Shown here piece by piece: positions 28,127 through 41,739 of a stretch of 64,000 bases of DNA (positions are counted from its first letter, which is position 1; each line of letters opens with the position of its first letter). Under the pieces are notes generated by a model. That model searched no databases. It saw only the letters and a program-made list of their open reading frames with translations, and had not been told where the DNA came from. The position numbers and the translations under genes were made by a program. Origin of the DNA: Lacrimispora indolis DSM 755 (GTDB lineage Bacteria; Bacillota; Clostridia; Lachnospirales; Lachnospiraceae); assembly GCF_000526995.1 (NCBI RefSeq), contig NZ_AZUI01000001.1, forward strand, positions 5,560,001 through 5,624,000, in the 5' to 3' direction.

Positions 28127-28381
28127 ATGGAAGAATTCTATCAGGCAATCGAAGAAGCCATACGCACGGCCGGATATAAAGGCCCTGTGGATGGGGAAGA
28201 AATCTACAACGAGATCTGTGACGAAATTGAGGACAAGGAGCCGGGGGCATATATATTCATGTCAAAGAAAACGGAGGATACCTTTTTTGAATATAAAATC
28301 CAGATTTTCGAAGACCAGTTTAATTTAAGCGTCATTGACATTCACACCACTGATCAAGTCTACCATGTAGATTTTGACTAA
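28127..28381 (+). CDS. Small protein of unknown function
   Basis: An 84-residue acidic protein beginning MEEFYQAIEEAIRTAGYKG. A helical first half (EIYNEICDEIEDKEPGAYIF) leads into a beta hairpin (FFEYKIQIFEDQFNLSVIDIHTTDQVYHVDFD). No motif was recognised. The start is set by GAGG 8-9 nt upstream and the good promoter. The TAA overlaps the convergent P1-peptidase TAG by 3 bp (shared bases 28379-28380 within CTAA), and no terminator separates them. Confidence 0.7.
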   Translation: MEEFYQAIEEAIRTAGYKGPVDGEEIYNEICDEIEDKEPGAYIFMSKKTEDTFFEYKIQIFEDQFNLSVIDIHTTDQVYHVDFD

Positions 28382-29421
28382 GGCCGATCCTTGGAAAGCC
28401 ACAGGTCTGTGAGGGAACGCACTATATTTCCCTTGTGGCCTGTGGTTGTTTTTGCCATGGCAAGAGAATTGAGGACCGCTTCCTCCGTCGCTTCCACCGC
28501 AGCAATAAATGCACTTTCCAGGGCGCTTTCCTTTAAAATGCTTATGGACATCAGCTCTTTTTCCGGCCGTTCCGGTATCCGGTTTGCCGTGGTAAAGCCG
28601 ACCATAATATCCCCGCTTCCATGGCCCATGTAGGAACCGGTTCTGGACAGCCCTACTCCTGCCCGCTTTAAAATCCGTTTTAACTGACGGTCTGTGACAG
28701 GAAGATCTGTTGCTACGATCGTCATGACGGAACCTCTGTCCAAAATTGACGGCTCTGTCAGCCGGAAAATTTCCTTTCCAACAGCCATTCCGTTCACCAT
28801 CAGGTTTTCCGTGCTTCCGAAATTTGACTGCACAATTGCCCCCAGGGTATAGGTCTCTCCTCCGATTTGAAACCTTCTGGAGGCGGAGCCGATCCCGCCC
28901 TTTAACCCATAGCATACGGTACCGCAGCCTGCACCTATTGCTCCTTCTTCAAAATCTGCCGTGGCCTCTGCAACAGCCGCTTTCACTTCTTCCAGGCCAA
29001 CCACCCTGTCACTGATTTTGTTTAAGACCGAATCATTGCATTCTCCTACCACGGGATTAATGGAGGTGACCTCTATTCCCTCCTTATTGCACTGCTCAAG
29101 CATGAAATCTACCAGGGCATCATGGACCTTCCCTACATTTAACGTATTGGTAAGAGCCACAGGCGTTTCCAGGGTTCCAAGCTCTTCCACCTGGATAAGA
29201 CCCTGGCTCTTTCCAAAGCCGTTATGGATATAGGCAGCCGCCACCAGTTTTCTGGAGAATGGATTGTCCTTACAGGGCAAAATGACTGTGACTCCTGTTT
29301 TATGATCTTTGGTATTGATGGTGGCATGTCCCACCAAAACCCCTTCCACATCGGTAATTTTATTAAGGGGCCCCGGAGCCAGTTTCCCCGTGATAATACC
29401 ATATTCCCGTATCCTCTTCAT
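28378..29421 (-). CDS. P1-family (DmpA/BapA-like) aminopeptidase
   Basis: A 347-residue N-terminal-nucleophile-type precursor. These enzymes self-cleave before a Ser and release N-terminal or beta-amino acids. The expected cleavage pair Gly230-Ser231 lies in LDRGSVMTIVATDLP, followed by the conserved RAGVGLSRTGSYMGHGSGD. The N-terminal part has ITDVEGVLVGHATI and TNTLNVGKVHDAL, and the middle has IGAGCGTVCYGLKGGIGSASR. GAGGAGGAAAGG supports ATG 29421; the longer frame to 29463 has no site. Cytoplasmic, no signal peptide. The substrate is unknown. Confidence 0.88.
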   Translation of the reverse strand: MKRIREYGIITGKLAPGPLNKITDVEGVLVGHATINTKDHKTGVTVILPCKDNPFSRKLVAAAYIHNGFGKSQGLIQVEELGTLETPVALTNTLNVGKVHDALVDFMLEQCNKEGIEVTSINPVVGECNDSVLNKISDRVVGLEEVKAAVAEATADFEEGAIGAGCGTVCYGLKGGIGSASRRFQIGGETYTLGAIVQSNFGSTENLMVNGMAVGKEIFRLTEPSILDRGSVMTIVATDLPVTDRQLKRILKRAGVGLSRTGSYMGHGSGDIMVGFTTANRIPERPEKELMSISILKESALESAFIAAVEATEEAVLNSLAMAKTTTGHKGNIVRSLTDLWLSKDRP

Positions 29422-29504
29422 GATCCTTTCCTCCTCTTTTGCATTTATGTTCTTATTATACATAAAAAACTTCGGAATACGTTCATTTTCTGGTTTTTTC
29501 CATA

Positions 29505-29533
29505 TTGTACCAGAGAAAAAACACTGCTATAAT
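29505..29533 (+). promoter_or_regulatory. Sigma-A promoter of the 79-residue gene
   Basis: TTGTAC (29505-29510), 17-bp spacer, TATAAT (29528-29533), 55 bp before the ATG at 29588. Confidence 0.65.
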
Positions 29534-29587
29534 AAAGGCGTAGGAATTGACAATTATTTCACGGACATTCCAAAAGGAGGAATTCAC

Positions 29588-29827
29588 ATGAAAATTCAAA
29601 ATATCACGGATGTAGAAAAATTTTTTAAGGTTATCGAGCAGTGCAAAGGCACTGTTGAGCTGGTCTCCAAGGAAGGCGACCGGATCAATTTAAAATCCAA
29701 ATTAAGCCAGTACCTTTCCATGGCTACCATTTTTTCCAATGGCAGCATCATCAGTGAACTGGAACTGGTTGCCCATGATCCGGAGGATGTGGAACGGCTC
29801 ATCAAGTATATGTACCAGGGTGAATAG
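29588..29827 (+). CDS. Small conserved-looking protein, function unknown
   Basis: A 79-residue protein: MKIQNITDVEKFFKVIEQCK, then a short strand-rich middle (GTVELVSKEGDRINLKSKL), then a helical C-terminus (HDPEDVERLIKYMYQGE). AAAGGAGG precedes the ATG, and it has its own promoter and a strong terminator, so it is a real gene although short. No catalytic motif was recognised. Similar short proteins in Clostridia carry only automatic names. Confidence 0.75.
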   Translation: MKIQNITDVEKFFKVIEQCKGTVELVSKEGDRINLKSKLSQYLSMATIFSNGSIISELELVAHDPEDVERLIKYMYQGE

Positions 29828-29828
29828 T

Positions 29829-29861
29829 AAAAAGAGGGGTTCCATGAATCCCTCTTTTTTT
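29829..29861. terminator. Bidirectional terminator with 3-nt loop
   Basis: AAAAAGAGGGGTTC (29829-29842) and GAATCCCTCTTTTT (from 29846) form a 14-bp stem with one G-U pair, a CAT loop and T runs on both sides. It serves the 79-residue gene and the convergent permease gene. Confidence 0.85.
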
Positions 29862-29870
29862 GTTGTACAT

Positions 29871-31013
29871 CTATATTTTTTTGTTTTTAATCGGCTTCTT
29901 CTTTTCCAGCCTTCCGTTTACGATCTCCCTGAGAATGGCATACACCACGGAGCAAAGAGGGATGAACACCAGCATTCCCACAATCCCCATGGCGCTGCCG
30001 CCGATGGTGACAGCCACCAGGACCCAGATGGAAGGAAGTCCCACAGAATTTCCCACCACATGGGGGTAGATAAAGTTTCCTTCCACCTGCTGAAGGACAA
30101 AAAATATGATCAGGAAGATGACCGCATCAAGCGGCTTTACCATCAGCATCAAAAATGCTCCGATGGCACATCCGATAAATGCCCCGAACATGGGTATAAG
30201 GGCTGTAAATGCAATCAGGACGCCGATGAGAAGCCCATAAGGAAGGCGGAAAACAGACAGGGTCAAAAAGAACATGCTTCCAAGGATGACCGCCTCCAGG
30301 CACTGTCCGGCAAGGAAATTGGAAAAGGTTTCGGAGACCAGCTTTAAAATTTCAAGGGTCCGCACCATTACCGCTTCCGGAAGAAAGGCCTTCATCAGCT
30401 TTTGAAACTGGCGTGAAAGAGTCTCTTTCTGAAGAAGAATATAAATGGCAAAGACCAGGGCAATGACAAAGGTTGTCACTCCGTTTATAATGGACATGGC
30501 GGCTGATACCGTGGAGGAAAGCACTGATCCCGCTCCGGTGGATAAAAATCCGACCACTCCTTCCAAAAAGGCTTTCCAGTCGATCTGGATGCTGTTAATA
30601 TAGTCAGCGATCTCCGGATTCTGGGCAAACAGCCTTTCCGCTTCCTCCTTCACACTTGCAAGAAAAGTCGGAATGCTGTTTTGCAGACTTAAAATCGTCT
30701 CAAAAAGCTGGGGCATCACCACAAAGATGACAAGCAGCAGAACCCCTACCACAAACACCAGGGTAAGGCAAAGGCTAAATGGCCTGCGGAGCCTGCTCTC
30801 TTCCTTTACCGGCAGCATCTTTTCAATTCTGCGCATGGGTACATTGAGGATAAAGGCCATGACCCCTCCCAAAAGAAAGGGCGAGACAAACCCTATAAGC
30901 CTCATGGCCAGGGCAAACAGGCTTCTGTAATTCCAGCCTGCCACCACCACGATTACGGCAAATACAATGAGTCCCCGTATTTTTTTTATTGTACTGTCAT
31001 TGAATTCCATCAT
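29871..31013 (-). CDS. AI-2E family permease-like protein
   Basis: A 380-residue membrane protein. Helices at about 12-28 and 32-58, a long soluble/amphipathic loop (VKEEAERLFAQNPEIADYINSI), then at least five more helices with FLAGQCLEAVILGSMFFLT, LPYGLLIGVLIAFTALIPMFGAFIGC and the family's IYPHVVGNSVGLPSIWVLVAVTIGG. The family (YdiK, PerM, YhhT, TqsA) includes efflux proteins and Na+/H+ antiporters, so autoinducer export should not be assumed. It starts at ATG 31013 or 31010, 9 nt after the alaX stop, so the two are one operon. Confidence 0.87.
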   Translation of the reverse strand: MMEFNDSTIKKIRGLIVFAVIVVVAGWNYRSLFALAMRLIGFVSPFLLGGVMAFILNVPMRRIEKMLPVKEESRLRRPFSLCLTLVFVVGVLLLVIFVVMPQLFETILSLQNSIPTFLASVKEEAERLFAQNPEIADYINSIQIDWKAFLEGVVGFLSTGAGSVLSSTVSAAMSIINGVTTFVIALVFAIYILLQKETLSRQFQKLMKAFLPEAVMVRTLEILKLVSETFSNFLAGQCLEAVILGSMFFLTLSVFRLPYGLLIGVLIAFTALIPMFGAFIGCAIGAFLMLMVKPLDAVIFLIIFFVLQQVEGNFIYPHVVGNSVGLPSIWVLVAVTIGGSAMGIVGMLVFIPLCSVVYAILREIVNGRLEKKKPIKNKKI

Positions 31014-31022
31014 TCTCTCCTT

Positions 31023-32177
31023 TTATAACTCTTCCAAAAAAGCTTTTTTGATCTCTTCCTCAAAAGCCTGAAAAGTTCCCTGAGCCATCAGGGCACTTCC
31101 CCCTCCCCGGCCGTTTAATCTTCCATTTAATGCTTTGCTCAATGCCCTCATGTCCTTTTGGCTGCTTCCAAGCGCATACTGAAAGGCTCTCTCATCTCCG
31201 GAACATGCCAAAACCACGCTTCCTTTCTTTCCTTCATACAGCATGGTACAAAACTGTCTCAGCTGTACCGGTGACAAATCACGGTCAAATACCAAGAGAG
31301 GCTCATCCATTTGTGGATAATCTGCGGCCTTTCTCTCAAGAAGCTCTTTGGAAAGCTGGCTGATCCTTCCTTCCTTTTTAAACCCTTCCTCTTTTAACCT
31401 GCCAACCGCTTCCAGAACGCCATCCGGTTTTGCCGATAACAGGACAGAAATGCCGGACACTGCCTTTTGTTTTTTGTGGTAATCCTCAAAAGCCATCCGT
31501 CCGCATACCATAGTCACCCTGACACCGCCTTTATAATGAATCATCCCCGTCACCTTCAGAATGCCGATTTCTCCTGAGGTCATTACATGAGTACCGCAGC
31601 AGGCACATACATCTCCTCCCGGAAATTCGATCAGCCGTACTTGTCCGGTTAATTCCTTTTTGCTCCGGTAATCTATATTGGAAAGTTCCTCCTTTGACGG
31701 ATAAGATTCCAGGACCGGAATATCCCGCCAGATGAGCTCATTCACTTCCATCTCTGCCGCTTCTATCTGTTCCAGAGTCAGAGGGCCGTTAAAATCCACA
31801 GTCACCTCATCCTTTCCCATATGAAACCCTACATTATCAAGACCATAATGCTTATGTACGATACCCGATAATAAATGTTCTCCGGAATGATTCTGCATAT
31901 GGCCGAATCTTCTCTCCCAGTCTATGGCCCCGGTTACCTGGCTGCCCGCTTTCAGAGGCTTATCCGTAATATGGACAATGCCTTCCGGCTTTTCCCTTAC
32001 GTCAAGGACTGCTGCCTCTCCCAGGCTTCCCATATCAGCCGGCTGGCCTCCGCCCTCCGGATAAAAGGCTGTCCGGTCTAAAAGCACCTGAAAAAAACCG
32101 TCCTTTCCCTGGACGCAATCCAGCACTTCCCCTTCAAAGTTTTTTACATATGGTCTGTTATAATATAATTTATCCAT
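31023..32177 (-). CDS. alaX: Alanyl-tRNA editing protein AlaX, long form with DHHA1
   Basis: A 384-residue trans-editing factor that hydrolyses mischarged Ser-/Gly-tRNA(Ala). An N-terminal AlaRS-II-like barrel is seen (TAFYPEGGGQPADMG). Zinc-ligand motifs are H-S-G-E-H (97-101) and C-A-C-C-G-T-H (about 198-204). A coiled helical region precedes a DHHA1 domain at the C-terminus with NGRGGGSALMAQG. The long form with DHHA1 is common in Firmicutes. GAGGAG precedes the ATG. It is co-transcribed with the downstream AI-2E-type permease. Confidence 0.92.
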   Translation of the reverse strand: MDKLYYNRPYVKNFEGEVLDCVQGKDGFFQVLLDRTAFYPEGGGQPADMGSLGEAAVLDVREKPEGIVHITDKPLKAGSQVTGAIDWERRFGHMQNHSGEHLLSGIVHKHYGLDNVGFHMGKDEVTVDFNGPLTLEQIEAAEMEVNELIWRDIPVLESYPSKEELSNIDYRSKKELTGQVRLIEFPGGDVCACCGTHVMTSGEIGILKVTGMIHYKGGVRVTMVCGRMAFEDYHKKQKAVSGISVLLSAKPDGVLEAVGRLKEEGFKKEGRISQLSKELLERKAADYPQMDEPLLVFDRDLSPVQLRQFCTMLYEGKKGSVVLACSGDERAFQYALGSSQKDMRALSKALNGRLNGRGGGSALMAQGTFQAFEEEIKKAFLEEL

Positions 32178-32331
32178 CTTTTGCTCCTCATTTCTCTGTT
32201 GTTCTAATTATACACAACATTTGGATAAGTTCAATCACATCAAATCTAAAAATTTTGAGAAAAATGTGGAAACAGTGGCAAGCTGGCATTCATACACTTA
32301 CAGTGTAAACAAATTATTTGGAGGAACCTAT

Positions 32332-32589
32332 ATGAGTGATCTGGCAGCAACTAACTGTGGATGCGGATGCGATTGCAACAGCGGAGGATGCAACAGCGGT
32401 GGTTTCAATCTTATTTGGCTGATTCTTATCCTGTGCTTCTGTGGTGGCGGTAGCGGCGGTTGCGGCAACAGTTGCGGTAACAGTTGCGGCGGTTGCGGAA
32501 ATGATGGTGGCAGTTGGATTTGGATCATCATTCTTCTGTGCTGCTGTGGCGGCGGCGGCTTCGGTGGCGGAAATAACTTCTGCTGCTAA
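32332..32589 (+). CDS. Cys/Gly-rich small protein ('high-cysteine' type)
   Basis: An 85-residue protein with 20 or more cysteines: CGCGCDCNSGGCNSGG, then a hydrophobic stretch FNLIWLILILCFC, a GGSGGCGNSCGNSCGGCG block, a second hydrophobic stretch SWIWIIILLCCC and a GGGGFGGG tail. TTGGAGG precedes ATG 32332; the longer frame from 32221 lacks a site. Lachnospiraceae proteins like this carry the misleading label 'chorion class high-cysteine HCB protein 13'. The two hydrophobic stretches suggest membrane or coat association, with metal binding or disulfide cross-linking as an inference. Confidence 0.8.
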   Translation: MSDLAATNCGCGCDCNSGGCNSGGFNLIWLILILCFCGGGSGGCGNSCGNSCGGCGNDGGSWIWIIILLCCCGGGGFGGGNNFCC

Positions 32590-32872: not shown

Positions 32873-33445
32873 ATGAACAATGAAGAAAATGTCCGCGCCA
32901 ATGATCTGGACTCCCTTATCGGTGATAATCATCTTCAGATGATGAAGGCCGCCCTGCCTTATATGAGTGTTTCCCAACAGCGCTTTATCTCCTACTTCGT
33001 AAAAATAAACGAGCTGCAGCGCACCATCAATCTGTTTGAAGAGGGAGAAGTGGCGACCATGGGAATCTGCTCCGCAGGAGAGAGAAGCCAGTCCGACTCC
33101 CCCATTGATATGCTTAACACCATAAAGCCCTTTGCCAATCCGGCAGAACAGGATCTCATCGACCTTGTTATCAACTTCTTCCAGGGCTTTAGGCTGGCCG
33201 GTTCTTTCCCTGACCCCGTTCCCAGCTCCACCATTCCTGTCCAGGCTCAGGCCCAGTCCCAGGCCCAGTCCCAAACCCAAACCCAGTCCGAAGGACCCGG
33301 CAGGCCTGCCAATAACCAAAGACAAAATAACAATCCCTTTGGACGGATGTCTTTTGACCAGCTAAAGAACTTCATGCCTCCGGATCAACAGTCCAAATTG
33401 GAAACCATGCAGCTTATGATGTCCGCCATGCAGCAGATGAATTAA
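32873..33445 (+). CDS. Hypothetical protein with Gln-rich linker
   Basis: A 190-residue protein: a helical N-terminal domain (DLDSLIGDNHLQMMKAALPYM, VSQQRFISYFVKINELQRTI, to about residue 107), a low-complexity linker of alternating Gln and Ala/Ser/Thr (about 123-142), and a short helical C-terminus (MSFDQLKNFMPPDQQSKLETMQLMMSAMQQMN). No transmembrane segment. The start ATG has a weak AAGGA about 10 nt upstream. The next gene, 59 nt downstream, also encodes a small helical protein, and the two probably act together. The function is not recognised. Confidence 0.65.
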   Translation: MNNEENVRANDLDSLIGDNHLQMMKAALPYMSVSQQRFISYFVKINELQRTINLFEEGEVATMGICSAGERSQSDSPIDMLNTIKPFANPAEQDLIDLVINFFQGFRLAGSFPDPVPSSTIPVQAQAQSQAQSQTQTQSEGPGRPANNQRQNNNPFGRMSFDQLKNFMPPDQQSKLETMQLMMSAMQQMN

Positions 33446-33504
33446 TCTTTGTTCCTACCTTGATTCCCTTTACATATCCCCATAGAAAGGAAAGACAGTA
33501 ATCT

Positions 33505-33792
33505 ATGAACGCAAACTGGAAACAAGACCCCAGACTAAAAAACATGAATCCGCAAAAGCTATCCATGCTGAATGAATTTGCAAAACGAGTGGAAACCACC
33601 CCAAAAGACCAGCTTCTTCCAACGCTTTTAAGCTTAAATGCGGAAGCGAGCCAGAAAGGCATTCAGTTTAATGACCAGGAAACAGATCTTCTCATCTCCA
33701 TCATGAGCGCCAACATGGATCAAAATGAGCGGAAACGGATCGATACCTTTCGGATGCTCTCTAAAAACTTCATGAAACGCAATACAAAATGA
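33505..33792 (+). CDS. Hypothetical small helical protein
   Basis: A 95-residue, all-helical, highly charged protein (LKNMNPQKLSMLNEFAKRVE, LLPTLLSLNAEASQKG, ETDLLISIMSANMDQNERKR). GAAAGGAAAG precedes the ATG. It follows the Gln-linker gene on the same strand and shares short polar helical themes with its C-terminus. No family recognised. Transcription probably ends at the hairpin 33860-33903. Confidence 0.65.
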   Translation: MNANWKQDPRLKNMNPQKLSMLNEFAKRVETTPKDQLLPTLLSLNAEASQKGIQFNDQETDLLISIMSANMDQNERKRIDTFRMLSKNFMKRNTK

Positions 33793-33859
33793 GAACCTGA
33801 CAAACTGCACCCTTTGTCATGGACTGCAAAAAAGAGAGAGCCGATGGTTATGATATAAT

Positions 33860-33903
33860 AAGAATAAAGTGCGTTTCCAGACATGGAACCGCACTTTATT
33901 CTT
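33860..33903. terminator. Long hairpin between convergent transcripts
   Basis: AAGAATAAAGTGCG (33860-33873) pairs perfectly with CGCACTTTATTCTT (33890-33903), with a smaller inner stem GTTTCCA/TGGAAC. It is a terminator-like structure for both the 33505 gene and the PTS operon, although clear T runs outside the stem are lacking. Confidence 0.65.
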
Positions 33904-33931
33904 GTCAGTATGGAATCTTAAAAACAGGCCT

Positions 33932-35338
33932 TTAATTGCCAAGGAAAATCTCCATGTTTTCATCCTTTACTCCCAATATGTTTGTAAAGAAAGCTGCACC
34001 GATCACTGCCGCCAGATAGCTCAATAAGTATGCACCTGGTTTGGTATTAACCAATGCACCCAGCAGCCCCGATACATTCATGGCAATGGCTCCTTGTCCT
34101 GGGAAAAGGCCTAATACAAAGCCGCCACATGCACCGCCAAGATTTGCAGCAATAAATGGCCGCCACAAAGGAATTGAAATACCATAAATCATTGGCTCAG
34201 ATATACCAAGCAGCTGTGTCGGTAAATTACCAATTACCGCAGCACGCAGTTTTTTATATTTTTCTTGTTTGCGATATTTAATAAGTAATCCTAAAGCAAC
34301 ACCAGCCAGTCCTGCCCCGGCAAGTGAAAGGAATCCTTGCAGGGATGTGTAACCAACTTCCTGTAATAAAGTGGTTTGGATCGGAGTAACAATGTGATGG
34401 ATTCCCAAAGCAACCAGCGGCAGGAATGTTCCGGAGATAATTGCACCTCCGACTGCTCCCGCGTTGTAAACAAGCCAGATAACAACGTTGGCAAGTGCAT
34501 TTGCAATCATACCGCTGATTGGCTGAATCACAAACAGTACAGCAATACCGGTGAGCAAGATTGAACATAATGCCGGAAAATGTACCTGCAAGACATTCGG
34601 AATAACTTTTCTGAATTTTCTTTCAAGTATTGCAACTAAGAAACCGCCAAGCAAGGCTGCAAGGGTTCCACCCATACCACTTTTAAATTCTAAGTTAAAG
34701 ATGCTCATTGATACACCATTTAAAAGGCCCACATTCGTTACAATTGCTCCAATTGCCATACCGACAAAGGGATTGCCTCCCATTGTTTTAGCCGCTTGTG
34801 ACGCAACAGCAATATTCATAATCGAAAAGAAAGATCCTGCAATAACGCTTAATGCCGCCATAAATACAGACCCCCCATCAGCGATTGCAGCAGGGTTGAA
34901 GAAATCCACTTTAAAATATATGAAAATATATTGAAAAATTCTCAACAATCCATAAAGCAGACCTGTTCCGGCCAATGCAGGTATCATCGGTGTAAACACC
35001 TGAGAAATCATCGTGAATATTTCGCTTCGGTTCTTTTTCTTTTCTCTGAAAATATCTGCTTTATTAACAACAGCCTGTTTCTGCGCGCGGGCATCCATCA
35101 TTTTTTGAACTTCACCCCGGACATATTCAGCATTTCCCGGACCAAGAATAACTTGTGGGTTGTAATTTTTCCCTGCTACACCAAGTACGCCGGGAATCTC
35201 TTTGAGCCTTTCTTTGTCGATCTTATCTTTGTCAAAAACTACAACTCTAAAACGTGTCATACAATTACTGATACGTTCAATATTGTCAATTCCACCTATT
35301 GCCTCAATAATTTGTTCAATAATATTTTGTTCAATCAT
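33932..35338 (-). CDS. PTS transporter, EIIBC component (glucose/sucrose superfamily)
   Basis: About 468 residues. The EIIB domain is first, with the phosphorylated Cys in I-S-N-C-M-T-R-F-R (about residue 27) and VLGVAGKNYNPQVILGPGNAEYV. A membrane EIIC domain of about ten helices follows, with TPMIPALAGTGLLYGLL, LVALGIHHIVTPIQTTLL and GISEPMIYGI. No EIIA domain is fused, so a shared EIIA is needed, as for MurP and sucrose-type IIBC proteins. It is the last gene of the antiterminator-FAD operon; its ATG (GGGAG upstream) overlaps the preceding stop by 8 nt. The substrate cannot be read from sequence. No phospho-glycosidase or kinase is in the operon. Confidence 0.88.
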   Translation of the reverse strand: MIEQNIIEQIIEAIGGIDNIERISNCMTRFRVVVFDKDKIDKERLKEIPGVLGVAGKNYNPQVILGPGNAEYVRGEVQKMMDARAQKQAVVNKADIFREKKKNRSEIFTMISQVFTPMIPALAGTGLLYGLLRIFQYIFIYFKVDFFNPAAIADGGSVFMAALSVIAGSFFSIMNIAVASQAAKTMGGNPFVGMAIGAIVTNVGLLNGVSMSIFNLEFKSGMGGTLAALLGGFLVAILERKFRKVIPNVLQVHFPALCSILLTGIAVLFVIQPISGMIANALANVVIWLVYNAGAVGGAIISGTFLPLVALGIHHIVTPIQTTLLQEVGYTSLQGFLSLAGAGLAGVALGLLIKYRKQEKYKKLRAAVIGNLPTQLLGISEPMIYGISIPLWRPFIAANLGGACGGFVLGLFPGQGAIAMNVSGLLGALVNTKPGAYLLSYLAAVIGAAFFTNILGVKDENMEIFLGN

Positions 35339-37250
35339 ATGATTCTCCCTTCCTGCTGCAATTGTCAATCTCTCCTGTTTTTGCCGCTTTCACGTAATCG
35401 GAGCCTTGCAGACCAAGCTTCCATTGAATAAATTCCCTTAACTTAAATGTCATATCATGTAAATCATTACGATTTGATTTCAGTGACGTATATACTTTAA
35501 AATCATCTCTGTACACAATCTGATGGATCCCGCCTGTCACTTTATCTTTCATATCTTCATTATGGTCTGCAATGTTAACCAGCGCTCTTACAATATGTGC
35601 AACGTATTGGAAATGATAATCCTGGCGGCTTCCTATAAATTTATCAAATTCCATTTCATCGTCAATAAAAGACTCATGCTCCTGCAGTAAACGGTACAAA
35701 ACAGAATAGCTCTCTTTTTGATGCAATCGTCCAAGACAATATACCGCACTCAAACCTCTCAGCATATTATATGACTTACTTGTCATCGGCTTATAAGAGT
35801 CACGTTTTTTCGCAGCCTGAACTAAAATGTCATGACCGGTGTTATCATCTAAAAGAGCAAGAACAATCCCGCTGTTCACCCTCATATTCTGGTTATTTGA
35901 CTGCAGTCCCTCTTTCAGCAATCTGGTTTTTCTTCCTCTATACGCTGCCAGCATGGCAAATCCAGGCCTATCTGATTTCATCGCTTTTACAATTTCTGAA
36001 TCTGTTTCCGGAAACCACATAGGCGTATTTATATCCGGAGGCGGGTTATCCTTCAATCCGTAATTGTTTTCTTCATTGAGGCAGCCGTCTTTTTCCAGCA
36101 GCGATTTAATTTGGCTGTATTTGACATCTGCCAATTTCAAATCATTTCTTAAAGCAGAATCAATAACAATAGCGCTGGCTTCGCCTGACTTCTGACAATC
36201 ACGCATCATTCGCGTATGGGATGCGATATCATGATCCAATGACATCATTCTTCCAATCGCCATAATATTCTCAATCCCCTTTGGTATCATTACTTCTTTC
36301 TCAATGGGAACGGATATCAAGGCTGACCACATGCTCAGTCCAACAACCCAATCACAAAGCTGTTCGCTTTCAAATGCCATCTCTTTTGTATGATTGTCGA
36401 AATTAGCACTTGAATAATATAACGGTTCTTTGGAAATATACCCATCGACGATTTCCTTCATGGTAATTTTCTTTAATCCATCGATGGAAAAACCTTCGCG
36501 GATTCCAATGATCGGAGACATTCCCAATGTGAATTGGTGTTCTTGCGGATTGGAATATACTGAATTATTTGTGGAATCAATTACAGATTTTGAGTACTCT
36601 TCCGGATTCTCCTGCTTCATAGTTCCGGCATCAATGTTATTGAATTCTATCCGATCCGCAAGAAAATCATAATACAGCCTTACATTTGAGAAAGGCTGGC
36701 ACAACCCATCAAACTCCCGGCCCTTATGTAATGTCAAACCGGCTATCCTGCATAACGAAGCGTCTGCTGTTGCATCAATAAATACTTTTGCTTCTACATT
36801 GACCTTTTTTTTGCACGTCAAATACTGAATTCCTTCTATCCTTTGATCCTGTTTGTATACACTCACAACAACAGCATTAAATTCTATGTTTGCCCCATAC
36901 TGTTCAAGAAGCTTATCATACACTACACGGCGAATCATTGGCTGAGAGCCAAATGCTTTGGATACCTGGTACTTATCCTGCATTTTTTCCACCATTGCAT
37001 CAAACTTTTCGTATATTCCACCAATGGACCCCCGATAGTACTGAAACATGGTGCTTGAATAAATGCCGCCCATAAAGCTCTTTTTTTCAATTACGAGCAC
37101 TTTGTGTCCCAAGCTCGCAAGCTTGACAGCCGCAATACTTCCGGCAGTTCCTGCGCCAACTACAATCACGTCAAATTTATCAACGTATATTACCTCGTTC
37201 AATTCTATCATTTTGGATTCTCCATCCGCCAGCCAATTCAGCGTCCGCAT
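35331..37250 (-). CDS. FAD-dependent oxidoreductase with C-terminal helical repeat region
   Basis: About 639 residues. The Rossmann motif V-V-G-A-G-T-A-G-S lies near 30-38, followed by VLVIEKKSFMGG, and KVFIDATADASLCRIAG is typical of the FAD_oxidored (PF12831-like) family. NIMAIGRMMSLDHDIASHTRMMRDCQKSGEA is the usual C-terminal FAD segment (quoted in two parts: NIMAIGRMMSLDHDIASH, TRMMRDCQKSGEA). The last 190 residues are predicted helical and HEAT-like (MRVNSGIVLALLDDNTGHDI, MLRGLSAVYCLGRLH, IVRALVNIADH). The start is ATG 37250, within TGATG, overlapping the upstream stop, with GGAGG 8 nt upstream. The substrate is unknown; a sugar or sugar phosphate is inferred from the PTS partner. Confidence 0.83.
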   Translation of the reverse strand: MRTLNWLADGESKMIELNEVIYVDKFDVIVVGAGTAGSIAAVKLASLGHKVLVIEKKSFMGGIYSSTMFQYYRGSIGGIYEKFDAMVEKMQDKYQVSKAFGSQPMIRRVVYDKLLEQYGANIEFNAVVVSVYKQDQRIEGIQYLTCKKKVNVEAKVFIDATADASLCRIAGLTLHKGREFDGLCQPFSNVRLYYDFLADRIEFNNIDAGTMKQENPEEYSKSVIDSTNNSVYSNPQEHQFTLGMSPIIGIREGFSIDGLKKITMKEIVDGYISKEPLYYSSANFDNHTKEMAFESEQLCDWVVGLSMWSALISVPIEKEVMIPKGIENIMAIGRMMSLDHDIASHTRMMRDCQKSGEASAIVIDSALRNDLKLADVKYSQIKSLLEKDGCLNEENNYGLKDNPPPDINTPMWFPETDSEIVKAMKSDRPGFAMLAAYRGRKTRLLKEGLQSNNQNMRVNSGIVLALLDDNTGHDILVQAAKKRDSYKPMTSKSYNMLRGLSAVYCLGRLHQKESYSVLYRLLQEHESFIDDEMEFDKFIGSRQDYHFQYVAHIVRALVNIADHNEDMKDKVTGGIHQIVYRDDFKVYTSLKSNRNDLHDMTFKLREFIQWKLGLQGSDYVKAAKTGEIDNCSRKGESYD

Positions 37251-38017
37251 CACAGATCCCTCCATAGTTCGACACCCTTGTCCATTGCTTCAAACACATT
37301 TTGTGTAAGACTTGAGCAAGCATAAATGATATTACCTGTTCTTTCCGCCTCATACTTTCCACGAATGCATGGCGTTTCTGCAATCATCAATAACTCATCT
37401 TCACTTTTCATTGGTTTTTCAAAATGAGCAAGGACCTGTCTCCTGTTATCTTTCATACTTGCGGTTTTCACAGGGATCTCCAGGCAGTATACGCCATTCC
37501 CAAGATCATAATGGCTTCCATCACGGCAAACCACTGGATCACTTCCTTTGCTTCTTACTAATGAACAACACGACATTTCATGTGGGAGTTTAAGATTATC
37601 AGCAGTCGTATCAATAAAATAGTCAGATTCAAAGGTCATCACCTGATCCCGGCAAAACGCTTCCACCGCTAATCCATGGGATTTTTGCACTTTTTCCATA
37701 ACCGTGCAGTCCAAAAGAATATTTATATTCATTTCTTTTACAAAATTCCCTATAACCGGCATGATTTCACTTATAATCAACAGATCCTCATAATACATAT
37801 GCTTGTTTTTTATAATACTTTGATACAATTTTTTCGTTGCTGCTTCTTTCATTTGGTAATTGCCCAAGCGGTCAATTCTAAGGCTCGTGTAATAGTCACT
37901 TCCCAGGACATTGCCCCGTTCAACAATTAACGTATTGTTTGGATCACAAGATGCCACAGCCAGTCCAAGGAAAGTGGCACCACTCACAATCGTCCGGTAC
38001 TTTTTCAACGTTTCCAC
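37250..38017 (-). CDS. Small FAD-dependent oxidoreductase-like protein
   Basis: A 255-residue protein, GTG start, 1 nt after the antiterminator stop. It begins KYRTIVSGATFLGLAVAS, a Rossmann-like strand-turn-helix with a degenerate G-x-x-x-x-G instead of GxGxxG. It includes LIVERGNVLGSDYYTSL, FESDYFIDTTADNLKLPHEM and a C-terminal CIRGKYEAERTGNIIYACSS. It resembles a shortened FAD_oxidored protein lacking most of the substrate-binding and C-terminal parts. Direct coupling to the 639-residue oxidoreductase suggests a two-subunit enzyme. FAD binding is uncertain because of the altered glycine motif. Confidence 0.72.
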   Translation of the reverse strand: METLKKYRTIVSGATFLGLAVASCDPNNTLIVERGNVLGSDYYTSLRIDRLGNYQMKEAATKKLYQSIIKNKHMYYEDLLIISEIMPVIGNFVKEMNINILLDCTVMEKVQKSHGLAVEAFCRDQVMTFESDYFIDTTADNLKLPHEMSCCSLVRSKGSDPVVCRDGSHYDLGNGVYCLEIPVKTASMKDNRRQVLAHFEKPMKSEDELLMIAETPCIRGKYEAERTGNIIYACSSLTQNVFEAMDKGVELWRDL

Positions 38018-38018
38018 C

Positions 38019-38864
38019 TCAATTCTTCGTATTCCTTCTGATAAAAGTATTGATATGAATTGCTAAATACATGATTTCAGCTTCTTCAACACTTACATCA
38101 AACGTATTCTCAATATAGTTCCTGATCTCCAATGAAATGCGGTATGCCTCCTCATACTCTTTCTTGATTACTTCCAGAATGCTTGAGTTATCCACCTGTA
38201 ATCTTTCGTTTTTTATTAAACGCATTGAAAAAAATTTAAGGTGAGTCATGAATCTTTCATAGCTGATTGAATCAGTATCAAATTCAATATTCAAATTTTT
38301 ACGTACTATGTTTAAGGATTGGTTGATAATTTTGGTCATAAAATCAGTATTGTTAAAGTAATTATCATCAAGTTGTGCATTCAAAATGTGCATGGCAATA
38401 AAAGATGCTTCATCATTTGGCAATTGTATATTCAGCGCGCTGTTAATAATTCCTACAGCTCTTTCACCGATATGATATTCAATCGTATAGAAACGCTTAA
38501 TTTCATTGTGAAGTTTATTCTCAAACATTTGATTGTTATGATATCTTTCCACAGCAAAATTAACGTGATCCAGCAAGGAAAAATAAACACTTGCAGGCAA
38601 TTCCCTTCCCATTGTAGATTCAGCATCTTCAACAATCTTGTTAACAACCTGGATATTGGAAAAATCAACATCCGATAACAGTGAAAGCAAATCATTCTCA
38701 TACTGTTTATCGGTTAATATATAGATCTTTTCAATTGCATGATCCAGAATATCATCACCAACTTTTTTCTGGAAACCAAGAGCCTTTCCAAGTAATAAAA
38801 CTTCCTGCCCCCGCTCATTCATTGAGCGCACTATATTATTATTAATTACTTTCGTTATCTTCAT
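38019..38864 (-). CDS. BglG/LicT-family transcriptional antiterminator
   Basis: A 281-residue protein. The CAT RNA-binding domain (1-55) starts MKITKVINNNIVRSMNERGQ. PRD1 (about 65-165) and PRD2 (about 175-281) contain candidate regulatory histidines in LLDHVNFAVERY, YHIGERAVG, THLKFFSMRL and YLAIHIN. It should bind the RAT element directly upstream when unphosphorylated on PRD1 by the PTS, so that substrate uptake opens its own operon. It is the first gene of the operon and is followed by the two oxidoreductases and EIIBC. Confidence 0.92.
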   Translation of the reverse strand: MKITKVINNNIVRSMNERGQEVLLLGKALGFQKKVGDDILDHAIEKIYILTDKQYENDLLSLLSDVDFSNIQVVNKIVEDAESTMGRELPASVYFSLLDHVNFAVERYHNNQMFENKLHNEIKRFYTIEYHIGERAVGIINSALNIQLPNDEASFIAMHILNAQLDDNYFNNTDFMTKIINQSLNIVRKNLNIEFDTDSISYERFMTHLKFFSMRLIKNERLQVDNSSILEVIKKEYEEAYRISLEIRNYIENTFDVSVEEAEIMYLAIHINTFIRRNTKN

Positions 38865-38929
38865 ATAGCTCCTTTCTTTTTTTCTTCTGACCTCAATATT
38901 ACCAATCCAAATGCTTGTATGATATATAC

Positions 38930-38988
38930 AAAAAAAAAGCAGACAACATCATACAAGATAGATGTGGCCTACTTAAAGTAACAACTCT
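38930..38988 (-). promoter_or_regulatory. RAT antiterminator element overlapping an intrinsic terminator
   Basis: On the minus strand 38988-38960 reads as a ribonucleic antiterminator: GAGTTGTTACT, loop, AGTAGGCCACATCT, matching the GGATTGTTACTG...CAGGCAAAACCT pattern of bgl/lic/sac leaders. Its 3' half (GTAGGCCACATC, 38972-38961) pairs instead with GATGTTGTCTGC (38950-38939), 12 positions with one mismatch and two G-U pairs, followed by nine Ts (38938-38930). This is the classical mutually exclusive antiterminator/terminator. Confidence 0.9.
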
Positions 38989-38995
38989 TGAGTAA

Positions 38996-39024
38996 AAGAT
39001 AGCATAGAATTTGTAAAATGTCAA
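38996..39024 (-). promoter_or_regulatory. Promoter of the PTS-oxidoreductase operon
   Basis: On the minus strand TTGACA (39024-39019), exactly 17 bp, TATCTT (39001-38996). The expected start lies a few bases before the RAT. No cre site could be defined with confidence by eye. Confidence 0.8.
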
Positions 39025-39192: not shown

Positions 39193-41607
39193 TTACCTGC
39201 ACACGATGTTTATAATTCTTCCGGGAACATAGATTTCCTTAACAATGGGTCCTGTTATCTTATCCGGGATCAAAGCCTTGCCGGCCTCAATGGCCTCTTC
39301 CTTTGATACGCCTACAGGAAGCTTCACCACTGCTCTGGTCTTTCCGTTAACCTGGACCGCGACCTCAATTTCGTCTTCCTTCATGGCCTCTTCATCACAT
39401 TCCGGCCACTGTGCATGGAATACGGAAGTCGTGCCGCCAAGCCGAAGCCACAGTTCCTCACCGATATGAGGTGCAAAGGGTGCAACCAGAACCACAAAAG
39501 CCTTTAACGTCTCTTTGTCAATTCCTCCGGTCTTCCCAGCCAACTCGATCAATTTATTGTTGTATTCCATGAATCCGGAAATAACCGTATTTAAATTAAA
39601 CTGGCTGAAACGCTGTTCAATATCAAAGATCAGCTTGTTGCGAAGGCGGAGCATTTCCCTGGTAGGCTCCACATTCTTACCGCTGCTTTCCGTCACCAGT
39701 TTCCAGAACCGGTTTAAGAAACGGCTGACGCCTTCAATTCCCCTGTCATCCCACTCTGCATCAAGCTCCGGCGGTCCTACGAAAAGCTCATACATACGAA
39801 GGGCATCACAGCCATAGTCACGAACCAGATCATCAGGAGATACCACATTTCCCTTTGACTTGCTCATCTTGATTCCGTTCTTTCCGTTTATCATACCCTG
39901 GTTGAACAGCTTGGTAAAGGGCTCATCAAAATCCACCACACCGATGTCGTTTAAAAATTTGGTGTAGAAACGGGAATACAGAAGATGAAGCACGGCATGC
40001 TCCACGCCGCCGATGTACATATCCACCGGAAGGTATTTCTTTGCTTTCTCTTTGGATACCAGTTCCTTATCATTGTGACTGTCCACGTAACGGAGGAAGT
40101 ACCAGGAAGAACCTGCCCACTGAGGCATGGTGTTGGTCTCTCTCTTAGCCGGAGCACCGCACACCGGACATGTGGTGTTCACCCATTCGTCAATGGCTGC
40201 CAGCGGAGATTCTCCTGTGCCGGTTGGCTGATAGCTTTCCACCTCCGGAAGGGTGAGCGGAAGCTGATCTTCCGGAACCGGGACATTGCCGCAATGAGGA
40301 CAGTGAATAATGGGAATCGGCTCTCCCCAGTAGCGCTGTCTGGAAAATACCCAGTCGCGGAGCTTAAAGTTTACGGTCTTCTTTCCCAGTCCCCGCTCCT
40401 CGATCATGACTGGAGCTTCTTTTTTAAGGACAGAGGACTCCATGCCATTCCACTCACGGGAATTGATCATGGTTCCATTGGCCTCGGTGTAAGCTTCGAT
40501 CATGTTTTCGATTTCTTTGCCATCCTTTGAGATGACCTGAACAATGGGAATATCAAACTTCTTTGCAAACTCAAAATCCCTGTCATCGTGAGCCGGTACG
40601 CACATAATGGCACCGGTTCCGTAGTCGGCAAGGACATAATCGGAGAGCCAGATGGGGACCTTGGCACCGCTTAAAGGATTCACAGCATAGCTGCCAGTAA
40701 AAACGCCGGTCTTTTCTTTATCCTGAAGGCGGTCCACATTTGACTTCATGGAAGCGTCGTAAATATATTTCTCAACCGCTTCCTTATTCTCCGGGGAAGC
40801 AAGGCCGGCGGCAAGAGCATGCTCAGGCGCCAGCACCATAAAGGTGGCTCCGTATAAGGTATCAGGTCTGGTGGTATAAACTGTAATACTTTCCTCTTTT
40901 CCGTCCACCTTAAAATCAACCTCGGCTCCATAGGATTTTCCGATCCACTCCGTCTGCATCTTCTTGACCTTTTCCGGCCAGTCAAGCTTATCCAGATCAT
41001 CTAACAGGCGGTCTGCATAAGCGGTGATTTTTAACATCCACTGTCTTAAGTTCTTTTTTGTGACTCCGGTTCCGCATCGCTCACAGCAGCCGTTTACCAC
41101 TTCTTCGTTTGCAAGTCCTGTCTTGCAGGATGGGCACCAGTTAATGGGGAATTCCTTCTCATAAGCCAGGCCTTTTTTAAACATCTGGACAAAAATCCAC
41201 TGGGTCCATTTATAAAATCCGGGATCAGTGGTGTTGACCTCCATATCCCAATCATAGACAGCTGCGATCTCATTGATCTGGCGTTTGATATTCATGACGT
41301 TTTCTGCCGTGGATTTCGCCGGATGGACTCCCATCTTGATGGCATAATTCTCTGCAGGCAGGCCAAAAGCATCCCAGCCCATAGGATGAATCACGTAATG
41401 TCCCTTTAAAATCTGATAACGGCTCCACACATCGGAAATTACATAGCCTCTCCAATGGCCTACATGAAGACCGCTTCCTGACGGATATGGGAACATATCC
41501 AGACAGTAATATTTCTGTTTCTTTCCGTCATCAACATTGATGGGGTTCTTTGCCCAGTTTTCACGCCACTTTTTCTCAATGGCGGTATGGTTGTATGATG
41601 CTGCCAT
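39193..41607 (-). CDS. leuS: Leucyl-tRNA synthetase
   Basis: An 804-residue class I synthetase. The HIGH motif is in YPSGSGLHVGHWRGY and KMSKS in NGIKMSKSKGNVVSP. The CP1 editing domain has TTRPDTLYGATFMVL. A zinc-binding CPSCKTGLANEEVVNGCCERC and HCPHCGNVP are present. The C-terminal anticodon-binding region ends at IVCR. The start ATG 41607 follows AAGGAGG; the upstream in-frame ATG at 41646 lies inside the leader. Expression is controlled by the T-box leader just upstream. Confidence 0.97.
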   Translation of the reverse strand: MAASYNHTAIEKKWRENWAKNPINVDDGKKQKYYCLDMFPYPSGSGLHVGHWRGYVISDVWSRYQILKGHYVIHPMGWDAFGLPAENYAIKMGVHPAKSTAENVMNIKRQINEIAAVYDWDMEVNTTDPGFYKWTQWIFVQMFKKGLAYEKEFPINWCPSCKTGLANEEVVNGCCERCGTGVTKKNLRQWMLKITAYADRLLDDLDKLDWPEKVKKMQTEWIGKSYGAEVDFKVDGKEESITVYTTRPDTLYGATFMVLAPEHALAAGLASPENKEAVEKYIYDASMKSNVDRLQDKEKTGVFTGSYAVNPLSGAKVPIWLSDYVLADYGTGAIMCVPAHDDRDFEFAKKFDIPIVQVISKDGKEIENMIEAYTEANGTMINSREWNGMESSVLKKEAPVMIEERGLGKKTVNFKLRDWVFSRQRYWGEPIPIIHCPHCGNVPVPEDQLPLTLPEVESYQPTGTGESPLAAIDEWVNTTCPVCGAPAKRETNTMPQWAGSSWYFLRYVDSHNDKELVSKEKAKKYLPVDMYIGGVEHAVLHLLYSRFYTKFLNDIGVVDFDEPFTKLFNQGMINGKNGIKMSKSKGNVVSPDDLVRDYGCDALRMYELFVGPPELDAEWDDRGIEGVSRFLNRFWKLVTESSGKNVEPTREMLRLRNKLIFDIEQRFSQFNLNTVISGFMEYNNKLIELAGKTGGIDKETLKAFVVLVAPFAPHIGEELWLRLGGTTSVFHAQWPECDEEAMKEDEIEVAVQVNGKTRAVVKLPVGVSKEEAIEAGKALIPDKITGPIVKEIYVPGRIINIVCR

Positions 41608-41739
41608 AACAAAATTTCCTCCTTCTCGCACACGCTTTTTGTGCATATAGGTATACCCGTAGGGTGCTTCCTCCTTTTACGAAAGGGATTTTCCCTGTTT
41701 TAAATGTCCGCGGATAAAATAATGACCTTAAGAGTAAAT

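What the first reader, a model, noticed from the sequence alone, without database searches (positions are those of the whole stretch)
33932..39024. Antiterminator-controlled operon joining a PTS importer to two FAD oxidoreductases with no glycosidase
The operon order is promoter, RAT/terminator, BglG-type antiterminator, small FAD-like protein (GTG start 1 nt after the stop), large FAD oxidoreductase (TGATG junction) and PTS EIIBC (8-nt overlap). Known BglG-controlled PTS operons normally carry a phospho-beta-glucosidase, sucrose-6-P hydrolase or similar enzyme. Here the only enzymes are two flavoproteins. This suggests that a phosphorylated sugar or glycoside is first oxidised, for example to a keto-sugar that can then be eliminated. 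I know of no described pathway with exactly this layout.
Basis: partly seen in the sequence, partly recalled or inferred. Interest (0 to 1): 0.75.

Follow-up and report, generated by a model that had tools for sequence, protein, structure and literature searches.

The report
PTS operon with paired FAD enzyme
A rare, probably transferred bacterial sugar-uptake operon couples a dedicated sugar importer to an uncharacterised flavin enzyme encoded by two genes that nearly always occur together, so its sugar chemistry is an open but testable question.

Summary
The operon is real. Minus strand: promoter-like site, RAT/terminator, LicT-type antiterminator, small protein, large FAD protein, PTS EIIBC. 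"Two FAD oxidoreductases" is better read as one two-subunit enzyme: in 48 of 51 loci read, the small gene lies directly upstream of the large one. The small protein has a full FAD-oxidoreductase-like predicted fold, but GxGxxG is replaced by Gx[T/S]xx[G/A] in 48 of 48 N-termini. The large protein belongs to PF12831 and has a HEAT-like C-terminus.

The EIIBC seems dedicated: pair-linked copies are 59-68% identical, against at most 31% over long matches to 28 of 34 other EIIC loci of the host. In Paenibacillus-like genomes the pair often sits with AraC regulators or ABC sugar transporters.

"No glycosidase" holds for the window and Lacticaseibacillus absianus, but two congeners have a 6-phospho-beta-glucosidase directly after EIIBC, and the host has 19 GH1 matches elsewhere.

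The chemistry is inferred: most likely hydroxyl oxidation of the imported phosphorylated compound. Redox-neutral flavin bond cleavage is the boldest reading left open.

The parts
38996..39024 (-). promoter-like site TTGACA-17-TATCTT with TG before the -10
   Evidence: consensus scan, 10 of 12 matches; the scan as a whole found 21 sites against 18.3 in shuffles
38960..38987 (-). RAT-like antiterminator element
   Evidence: 2 mismatches to a RAT-type consensus, 0.02 expected; 18-nt core identical in L030; published C. acetobutylicum RAT has a similar core (PMC12628678, passage); no Rfam match
38928..38972 (-). intrinsic terminator overlapping the RAT 3' arm
   Evidence: fold -13 kcal/mol, 0 of 200 shuffles as stable; not flagged by the terminator scan
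38019..38864 (-). BglG/LicT-type antiterminator (CAT_RBD + 2 PRD), 281 aa
   Evidence: Pfam; NCBIfam LicT 305.6 bits, cut-off 300
37250..38017 (-). small subunit, 255 aa, GTG start; full FAD-oxidoreductase-like predicted fold with GATFLG in place of GxGxxG
35331..37250 (-). large subunit, 639 aa from the ATG of TGATG (longest ORF starts at 37265); PF12831 FAD_oxidored plus HEAT-like C-terminus
   Evidence: Pfam 170.1 bits, cut-off 27
33932..35338 (-). PTS EIIBC of the glucose/sucrose superfamily, 468 aa, no EIIA domain found
   Evidence: Pfam PTS_EIIB and PTS_EIIC; distinct subfamily; conserved NCMTR and ISEPMIYG
33858..33906 (-). inverted repeat about 30 nt after the EIIBC stop, possible operon end
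   Evidence: read by eye from sequence; not flagged by the terminator scan

Best explanation
This is an inducible uptake-and-conversion operon for one specific sugar or glycoside. A LicT-type antiterminator, presumably controlled by PTS phosphorylation, binds the RAT and lets transcription pass the leader terminator. A dedicated EIIBC imports and phosphorylates the substrate. The small and large proteins form one two-subunit flavoenzyme: the large subunit binds FAD and carries the invariant active-site-type residues (e.g. H292, D290, R256/E257), and the small subunit is a degenerate FAD-fold partner that shapes or stabilises the site. The complex acts on the imported (phosphorylated) compound by oxidising a hydroxyl, possibly transiently, so the product can enter glycolysis directly or after a GH1 6-phospho-glycosidase (beside EIIBC in two congeners, in trans here). 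Shown: gene order, RAT/terminator, pairing, a distinct EIIBC subfamily, altered motif; folds are predictions. Inferred: regulation, complex formation, FAD only in the large subunit, substrate class, reaction.
Against: No substrate, cofactor or reaction is known for any member found. GH1 lies beside EIIBC in two congeners, so hydrolysis could be the main sugar step and the flavoenzyme could act on the released aglycone. No electron acceptor, eliminase, hydratase or keto-reductase is encoded in the operon. Neighbours in Paenibacillus-like genomes are mixed (GDSL esterase, Fe-ADH, aldehyde dehydrogenase, Gfo/Idh, heparinase-like, GH130 and others), and 16 of 45 loci there have neither an AraC- nor an ABC-cluster gene in the strict run. 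Three of 51 large loci lack a recognisable small gene (L052, L058, L119). The small profile finds only weak sequence matches in the PDB (best E 0.006). The altered motif does not prove that the small subunit lacks FAD.
Confidence: 0.5

Rival explanations
1. The imported compound is an ordinary beta-glucoside. A 6-phospho-beta-glucosidase (in the operon in congeners, in trans here) splits it, and the flavoenzyme pair then oxidises or reduces the released aglycone (for example a plant phenolic or terpenoid).
For: GH1 above the cut-off of a 6-phospho-beta-glucosidase subfamily directly after EIIBC in L029 and L051; 19 GH1 matches in the host; nearest folds of the large protein include aromatic hydroxylases, halogenases and geranylgeranyl reductases.
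Against: No GH1-like sequence in the window or in the 21.8-kb L. absianus locus, yet EIIBC stays 59% identical there. None of the 45 Paenibacillus-like loci read has a GH1-like sequence (other GH families not scanned throughout). Matches to this common FAD fold do not indicate substrate.
Confidence: 0.25
2. One reading: two independent flavoproteins act one after the other on the sugar phosphate, oxidising it to a keto-sugar that is then eliminated.
For: Both proteins have FAD-oxidoreductase-like predicted folds.
Against: Tight gene pairing in 48 of 51 loci, the small protein's consistently altered GxGxxG motif, and no gene for the elimination or hydration step in the operon.
Confidence: 0.07
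3. The pair is not catabolic but a redox or substrate sensor, or an electron-transfer module, that adjusts the uptake system.
For: Among the neighbours annotated, transporters and regulators recur more often than any one enzyme class.
Against: Many invariant polar residues typical of an active site; CxxC occurs in only 5 of 65 large proteins and not in the window's; the operon already has a sensor-regulator.
Confidence: 0.06
4. The pair is a flavin-dependent, redox-neutral glycosidase (transient C3 oxidation, elimination, hydration, re-reduction), a flavin counterpart of the NAD-dependent GH4 enzymes that also act on 6-phospho-glycosides.
For: GH4 enzymes run all four steps in one active site on 6-phospho-glycosides (PMC10628242, passages). 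Here a PTS delivers a phosphorylated substrate, and the operon has no acceptor, eliminase, hydratase or keto-reductase; a self-contained enzyme would explain that.
Against: No precedent known to me in this fold; a GH1 is present in two congeners; absence of other genes is weak evidence because they may act in trans.
Confidence: 0.1

Closest known systems
BglG/LicT-controlled beta-glucoside PTS operons (e.g. bglGTH of Clostridium acetobutylicum, PMC12628678, passages read)
   Same: Antiterminator gene first, RAT/terminator leader with a TTGTTACT...AGGC core, Glc-superfamily EII
   Different: No phospho-glycosidase in the operon; a small/large flavoprotein pair in its place; no EIIA domain found
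FAD-dependent glycoside 3-oxidoreductases (FAD-GO of Rhizobium sp. GIN611, PMC4650693, outline and passages read)
   Same: Would be the nearest known reaction type: flavin oxidation of a glycoside
   Different: A GMC-family enzyme studied on non-phosphorylated ginsenosides; no GMC domain in the large protein at E<=1
GH4 6-phospho-glycosidases (PMC10628242, passages read)
   Same: Redox-assisted chemistry on 6-phospho-glycosides
   Different: NAD and metal dependent; no GH4 Pfam match here
Two-gene flavoenzymes of the DAO type (heterotetrameric sarcosine oxidase, dye-linked proline dehydrogenase; subunit make-up recalled)
   Same: Two adjacent genes for FAD-fold subunits; the small model aligns to this fold class
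   Different: Amino-acid substrates, different large subunit, no HEAT-like domain (recalled)
PF12831 FAD_oxidored family
   Same: The large protein is a clear member
   Different: Only two papers in the library print the family's name or accession (listing only, not opened); I know of no characterised sugar-acting member

Membership tests
BglG/LicT antiterminator system | CAT RNA-binding domain followed by two PRD domains | tested here: met
BglG/LicT antiterminator system | RAT overlapping an intrinsic terminator in the leader | tested here: met
   sequence evidence only
BglG/LicT antiterminator system | PRD histidines phosphorylated by the PTS | not testable with these tools
   needs biochemistry
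PTS glucose/sucrose-superfamily EIIBC | EIIB and EIIC domains, EIIB phosphocysteine | tested here: met
   Cys of NCMTR identical in 4 of 4 pair-linked EIIBC; the role of this Cys is recalled
BglG-PTS-phosphoglycosidase operon | phospho-glycosidase gene in the operon | tested here: not met
   no GH1-like sequence in window or L030, present in L029 and L051; the four operon proteins were all Pfam-scanned
PF12831 FAD_oxidored (large) | score above the Pfam cut-off and GxGxxG | tested here: met
   170.1 against 27 bits; GAGTAG
PF12831 FAD_oxidored (small) | score above the Pfam cut-off and GxGxxG | tested here: not met
   17.3 against 27 bits; GATFLG
GMC FAD glycoside 3-oxidoreductases | GMC oxidoreductase domains | tested here: not met
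   no GMC family among the 19 Pfam matches at E<=1 for the large protein
GMC FAD glycoside 3-oxidoreductases | GMC fold | tested here: inconclusive
   searches are capped lists and do not decide it
GH4 redox glycosidases | Glyco_hydro_4 domain | tested here: not met
   no such Pfam match in any of the four proteins at E<=1
GH4 redox glycosidases | transient oxidation-elimination on 6-phospho-glycosides | not testable with these tools
   needs purified enzyme
Two-subunit flavoenzyme | conserved adjacent gene pair | tested here: met
   48 of 51 loci
Two-subunit flavoenzyme | stable complex of the two proteins with FAD | not testable with these tools
   only single chains could be modelled here

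The most novel reading that the evidence does not exclude
The small/large pair is a new class of flavin-dependent, redox-neutral enzyme that breaks or rearranges PTS-delivered sugar phosphates in one complex: a flavin counterpart of GH4, in which one two-subunit enzyme does the work of separate oxidase, eliminase, hydratase and reductase.
Probability: 0.1. Interest if true: 0.85.

Novelty: new variant of a known kind. Interest (0 to 1): 0.5.

Why it matters
It points to an uncharacterised two-gene flavoenzyme family found in Paenibacillus-like bacteria, Lachnospiraceae, an Oscillospiraceae MAG and a lactic acid bacterium. The PTS-linked form supplies an inducible, compact test system: one importer, one enzyme pair, one RAT switch. 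Finding the inducing sugar would point to the substrate and so to a first function for the pair. A flavin route to sugar phosphates or 6-phospho-glycosides would widen the known ways bacteria open glycosidic bonds.

Tried and rejected
Two unrelated flavoproteins: rejected because of the pairing. Small protein as a decayed fragment: rejected, since it is conserved over distant genomes with a confident full-length predicted fold. GMC or GH4 membership: not met by Pfam; the structure lists show no GMC chain among printed rows, which by itself decides nothing. A GH1 lost just after EIIBC here: no remnant at E<=10 in window 33400-34100. Plasmid spread: no plasmid record matched the large protein at E<=1e-30 or EIIBC at E<=1e-60; phage records were not searched. 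RAT patterns with wrong spacing found nothing; the corrected ones did. Rfam gave only one chance-level microRNA match. Paper searches returned nothing; one listed two papers, not opened; others gave background. Papers seen: PMC4650693 (outline and passages), PMC10628242 and PMC12628678 (passages only); the rest as listings with abstract starts.

Limits. Genome searches scored only some candidates per genome (up to 3, 12, 4), so absences there are soft. Two places (G844, G845) were not read with the other loci. Neighbour genes are crude longest-ORF calls, grouped by BLAST, and not every neighbour was Pfam-scanned. L052, L058 and L119 are kept in the 51-locus count; L052 and L058 were dropped from the 63-row conservation count. 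Several Paenibacillus-like loci come from closely related or the same genomes and are not independent.
Full report
What is there. The window lies in a 6.38-Mb, single-contig genome. Its genus is Lacrimispora by inference: G008, placed in the same genus, has a contig of the same length (64,087 bases) as the Lacrimispora celerecrescens 152B record of L029. On the minus strand between leuS (39193-41646, named by eye) and a convergent small gene (33505-33792) lies a four-gene operon: LicT-type antiterminator 38864-38019, small protein 38017-37250, large FAD protein 37250-35331, EIIBC 35338-33932. The cassette is 39.0% G+C against 46.4% for the window; 2 of 118 sliding 5-kb stretches are as low. 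With presence in only 3 of 25 genus genomes, this suggests horizontal gain.

Regulation. The antiterminator scores just above the LicT cut-off (305.6 against 300). The leader holds a RAT-like element (2 mismatches, 0.02 expected by chance) whose 3' arm is shared with a terminator hairpin (z -4.65), although the whole leader is not unusually stable (z -1.15). The published RATs of the C. acetobutylicum bgl operon read GGATTGTTACTG-N6/7-CAGGCGAGACC (PMC12628678, passage). Upstream of the corresponding antiterminator gene of Lacticaseibacillus absianus (L030) the 18-nt core TTGTTACTTTAAGTAGGC is identical, although the two antiterminators are only 45% identical. In the two Lacrimispora congeners an RpiR-type regulator gene stands upstream instead (for L029; the L051 protein falls in the same BLAST cluster).

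The transporter belongs to the pair. EIIBCs of the window, L029 and L030 are 59-68% identical to each other. To 28 of the 34 other EIIC loci of its own genome the window copy shows at most 31% over its long matches; 14 of the 28 match at E<=1e-5, and short matches (48-72 residues) reach 44%. The large proteins of window and L030 are only 38% identical and the small ones 19%, so the importer is the most conserved part, which argues for a conserved substrate. At E<=1e-110 no further EIIBC of this kind was found in samples of 371 and 368 genomes, each of which held one known member. The tree of 65 large proteins puts the four PTS-linked ones with 13 metagenomic ones of unknown context in one group (100/99), next to an Oscillospiraceae member whose 16-kb locus shows no such EIIBC (L031), with the Paenibacillus-like ones apart. 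The PTS label by itself needs 4 changes on this tree, no fewer than shuffled labels, because the unlabelled metagenomic rows lie among the labelled ones; L030 and L031 are long branches.

Glycosidase. Of the 51 loci (the whole window included), only L029 and L051 show a GH1-like sequence (tblastn E<=1e-3). There it follows EIIBC directly and scores above the cut-off of a 6-phospho-beta-glucosidase subfamily. In L029 the GH1 frame also shifts near its 3' end. The host has 19 GH1 matches at E<=1e-40, none of them in the window. No GH1 remnant was found just after the window's EIIBC. So the lack of a glycosidase is not a fixed property of the system, and hydrolysis in trans is possible.

Elsewhere. 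In 45 Paenibacillus-like loci the close-packed strand run holds an AraC-cluster gene in 28, an ABC-transporter-cluster gene in 15, and either in 29; 16 have neither. Other neighbours vary: GDSL esterase, Fe-ADH with an aldehyde dehydrogenase, Gfo/Idh, heparinase-like or GH141-like proteins, GH130, a second FAD_oxidored, a chalcone-synthase-like protein. This fits, but does not prove, a general tool of carbohydrate use with varying substrates.

Mechanism. I favour one two-subunit flavoenzyme acting on the imported, phosphorylated compound. H292, D290, R256 and E257 (63 of 63) and H345 (61 of 63) are candidates for alcohol oxidation (role inferred). No acceptor, eliminase, hydratase or keto-reductase is encoded alongside. 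Either those act in trans, or the oxidation is transient and the complex is redox-neutral, as GH4 enzymes manage with NAD on 6-phospho-glycosides (PMC10628242, passages). The FAD glycoside oxidoreductase that I read about is a GMC enzyme (PMC4650693, outline and passages); this one is not, by Pfam.

Novelty. The pieces (antiterminator, EIIBC, PF12831) are known. The pair and its dedicated PTS were not found in print, which cover only open-licence papers. I rate it a new variant of a known kind, interest 0.5, with a low-probability, high-interest reading as a flavin redox-neutral enzyme.

Noticed in passing
L029:7404-8191 and L029:11440-12878: In the L. celerecrescens 152B record both the small gene and, near its 3' end, the GH1 gene are frameshifted, while the congener L051 has both in one frame; real decay or sequencing error was not decided.
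   Followed up: partly
window 33932-39024: The cassette is among the most A+T-rich stretches of its size in the window (39.0% against 46.4% G+C), suggesting acquisition between leuS and the convergent small gene.
   Followed up: partly
L058:7602-10693: A distant large protein without the small partner is followed by a 371-aa FAD_oxidored protein, perhaps an older form of the pairing with a canonical second flavoprotein.
   Followed up: no
window 32221-32589: Glycine- and cysteine-rich 122-aa open reading frame without a Pfam match at E<=1e-5.
   Followed up: no
window 28378-32177: Ordinary neighbours: S58 peptidase, AI-2E-family transporter, and a protein with alanyl-tRNA-synthetase-like and second additional domains, possibly a tRNA-editing protein.
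   Followed up: no
L117:5501-7003: A full FAD_oxidored protein lies in the same strand run directly after a small/large pair, giving three FAD-fold genes in a row.
   Followed up: no
G000:C1:4027815-4030285: Two adjacent high-scoring FAD_oxidored matches elsewhere in the host genome; context not examined.
   Followed up: no
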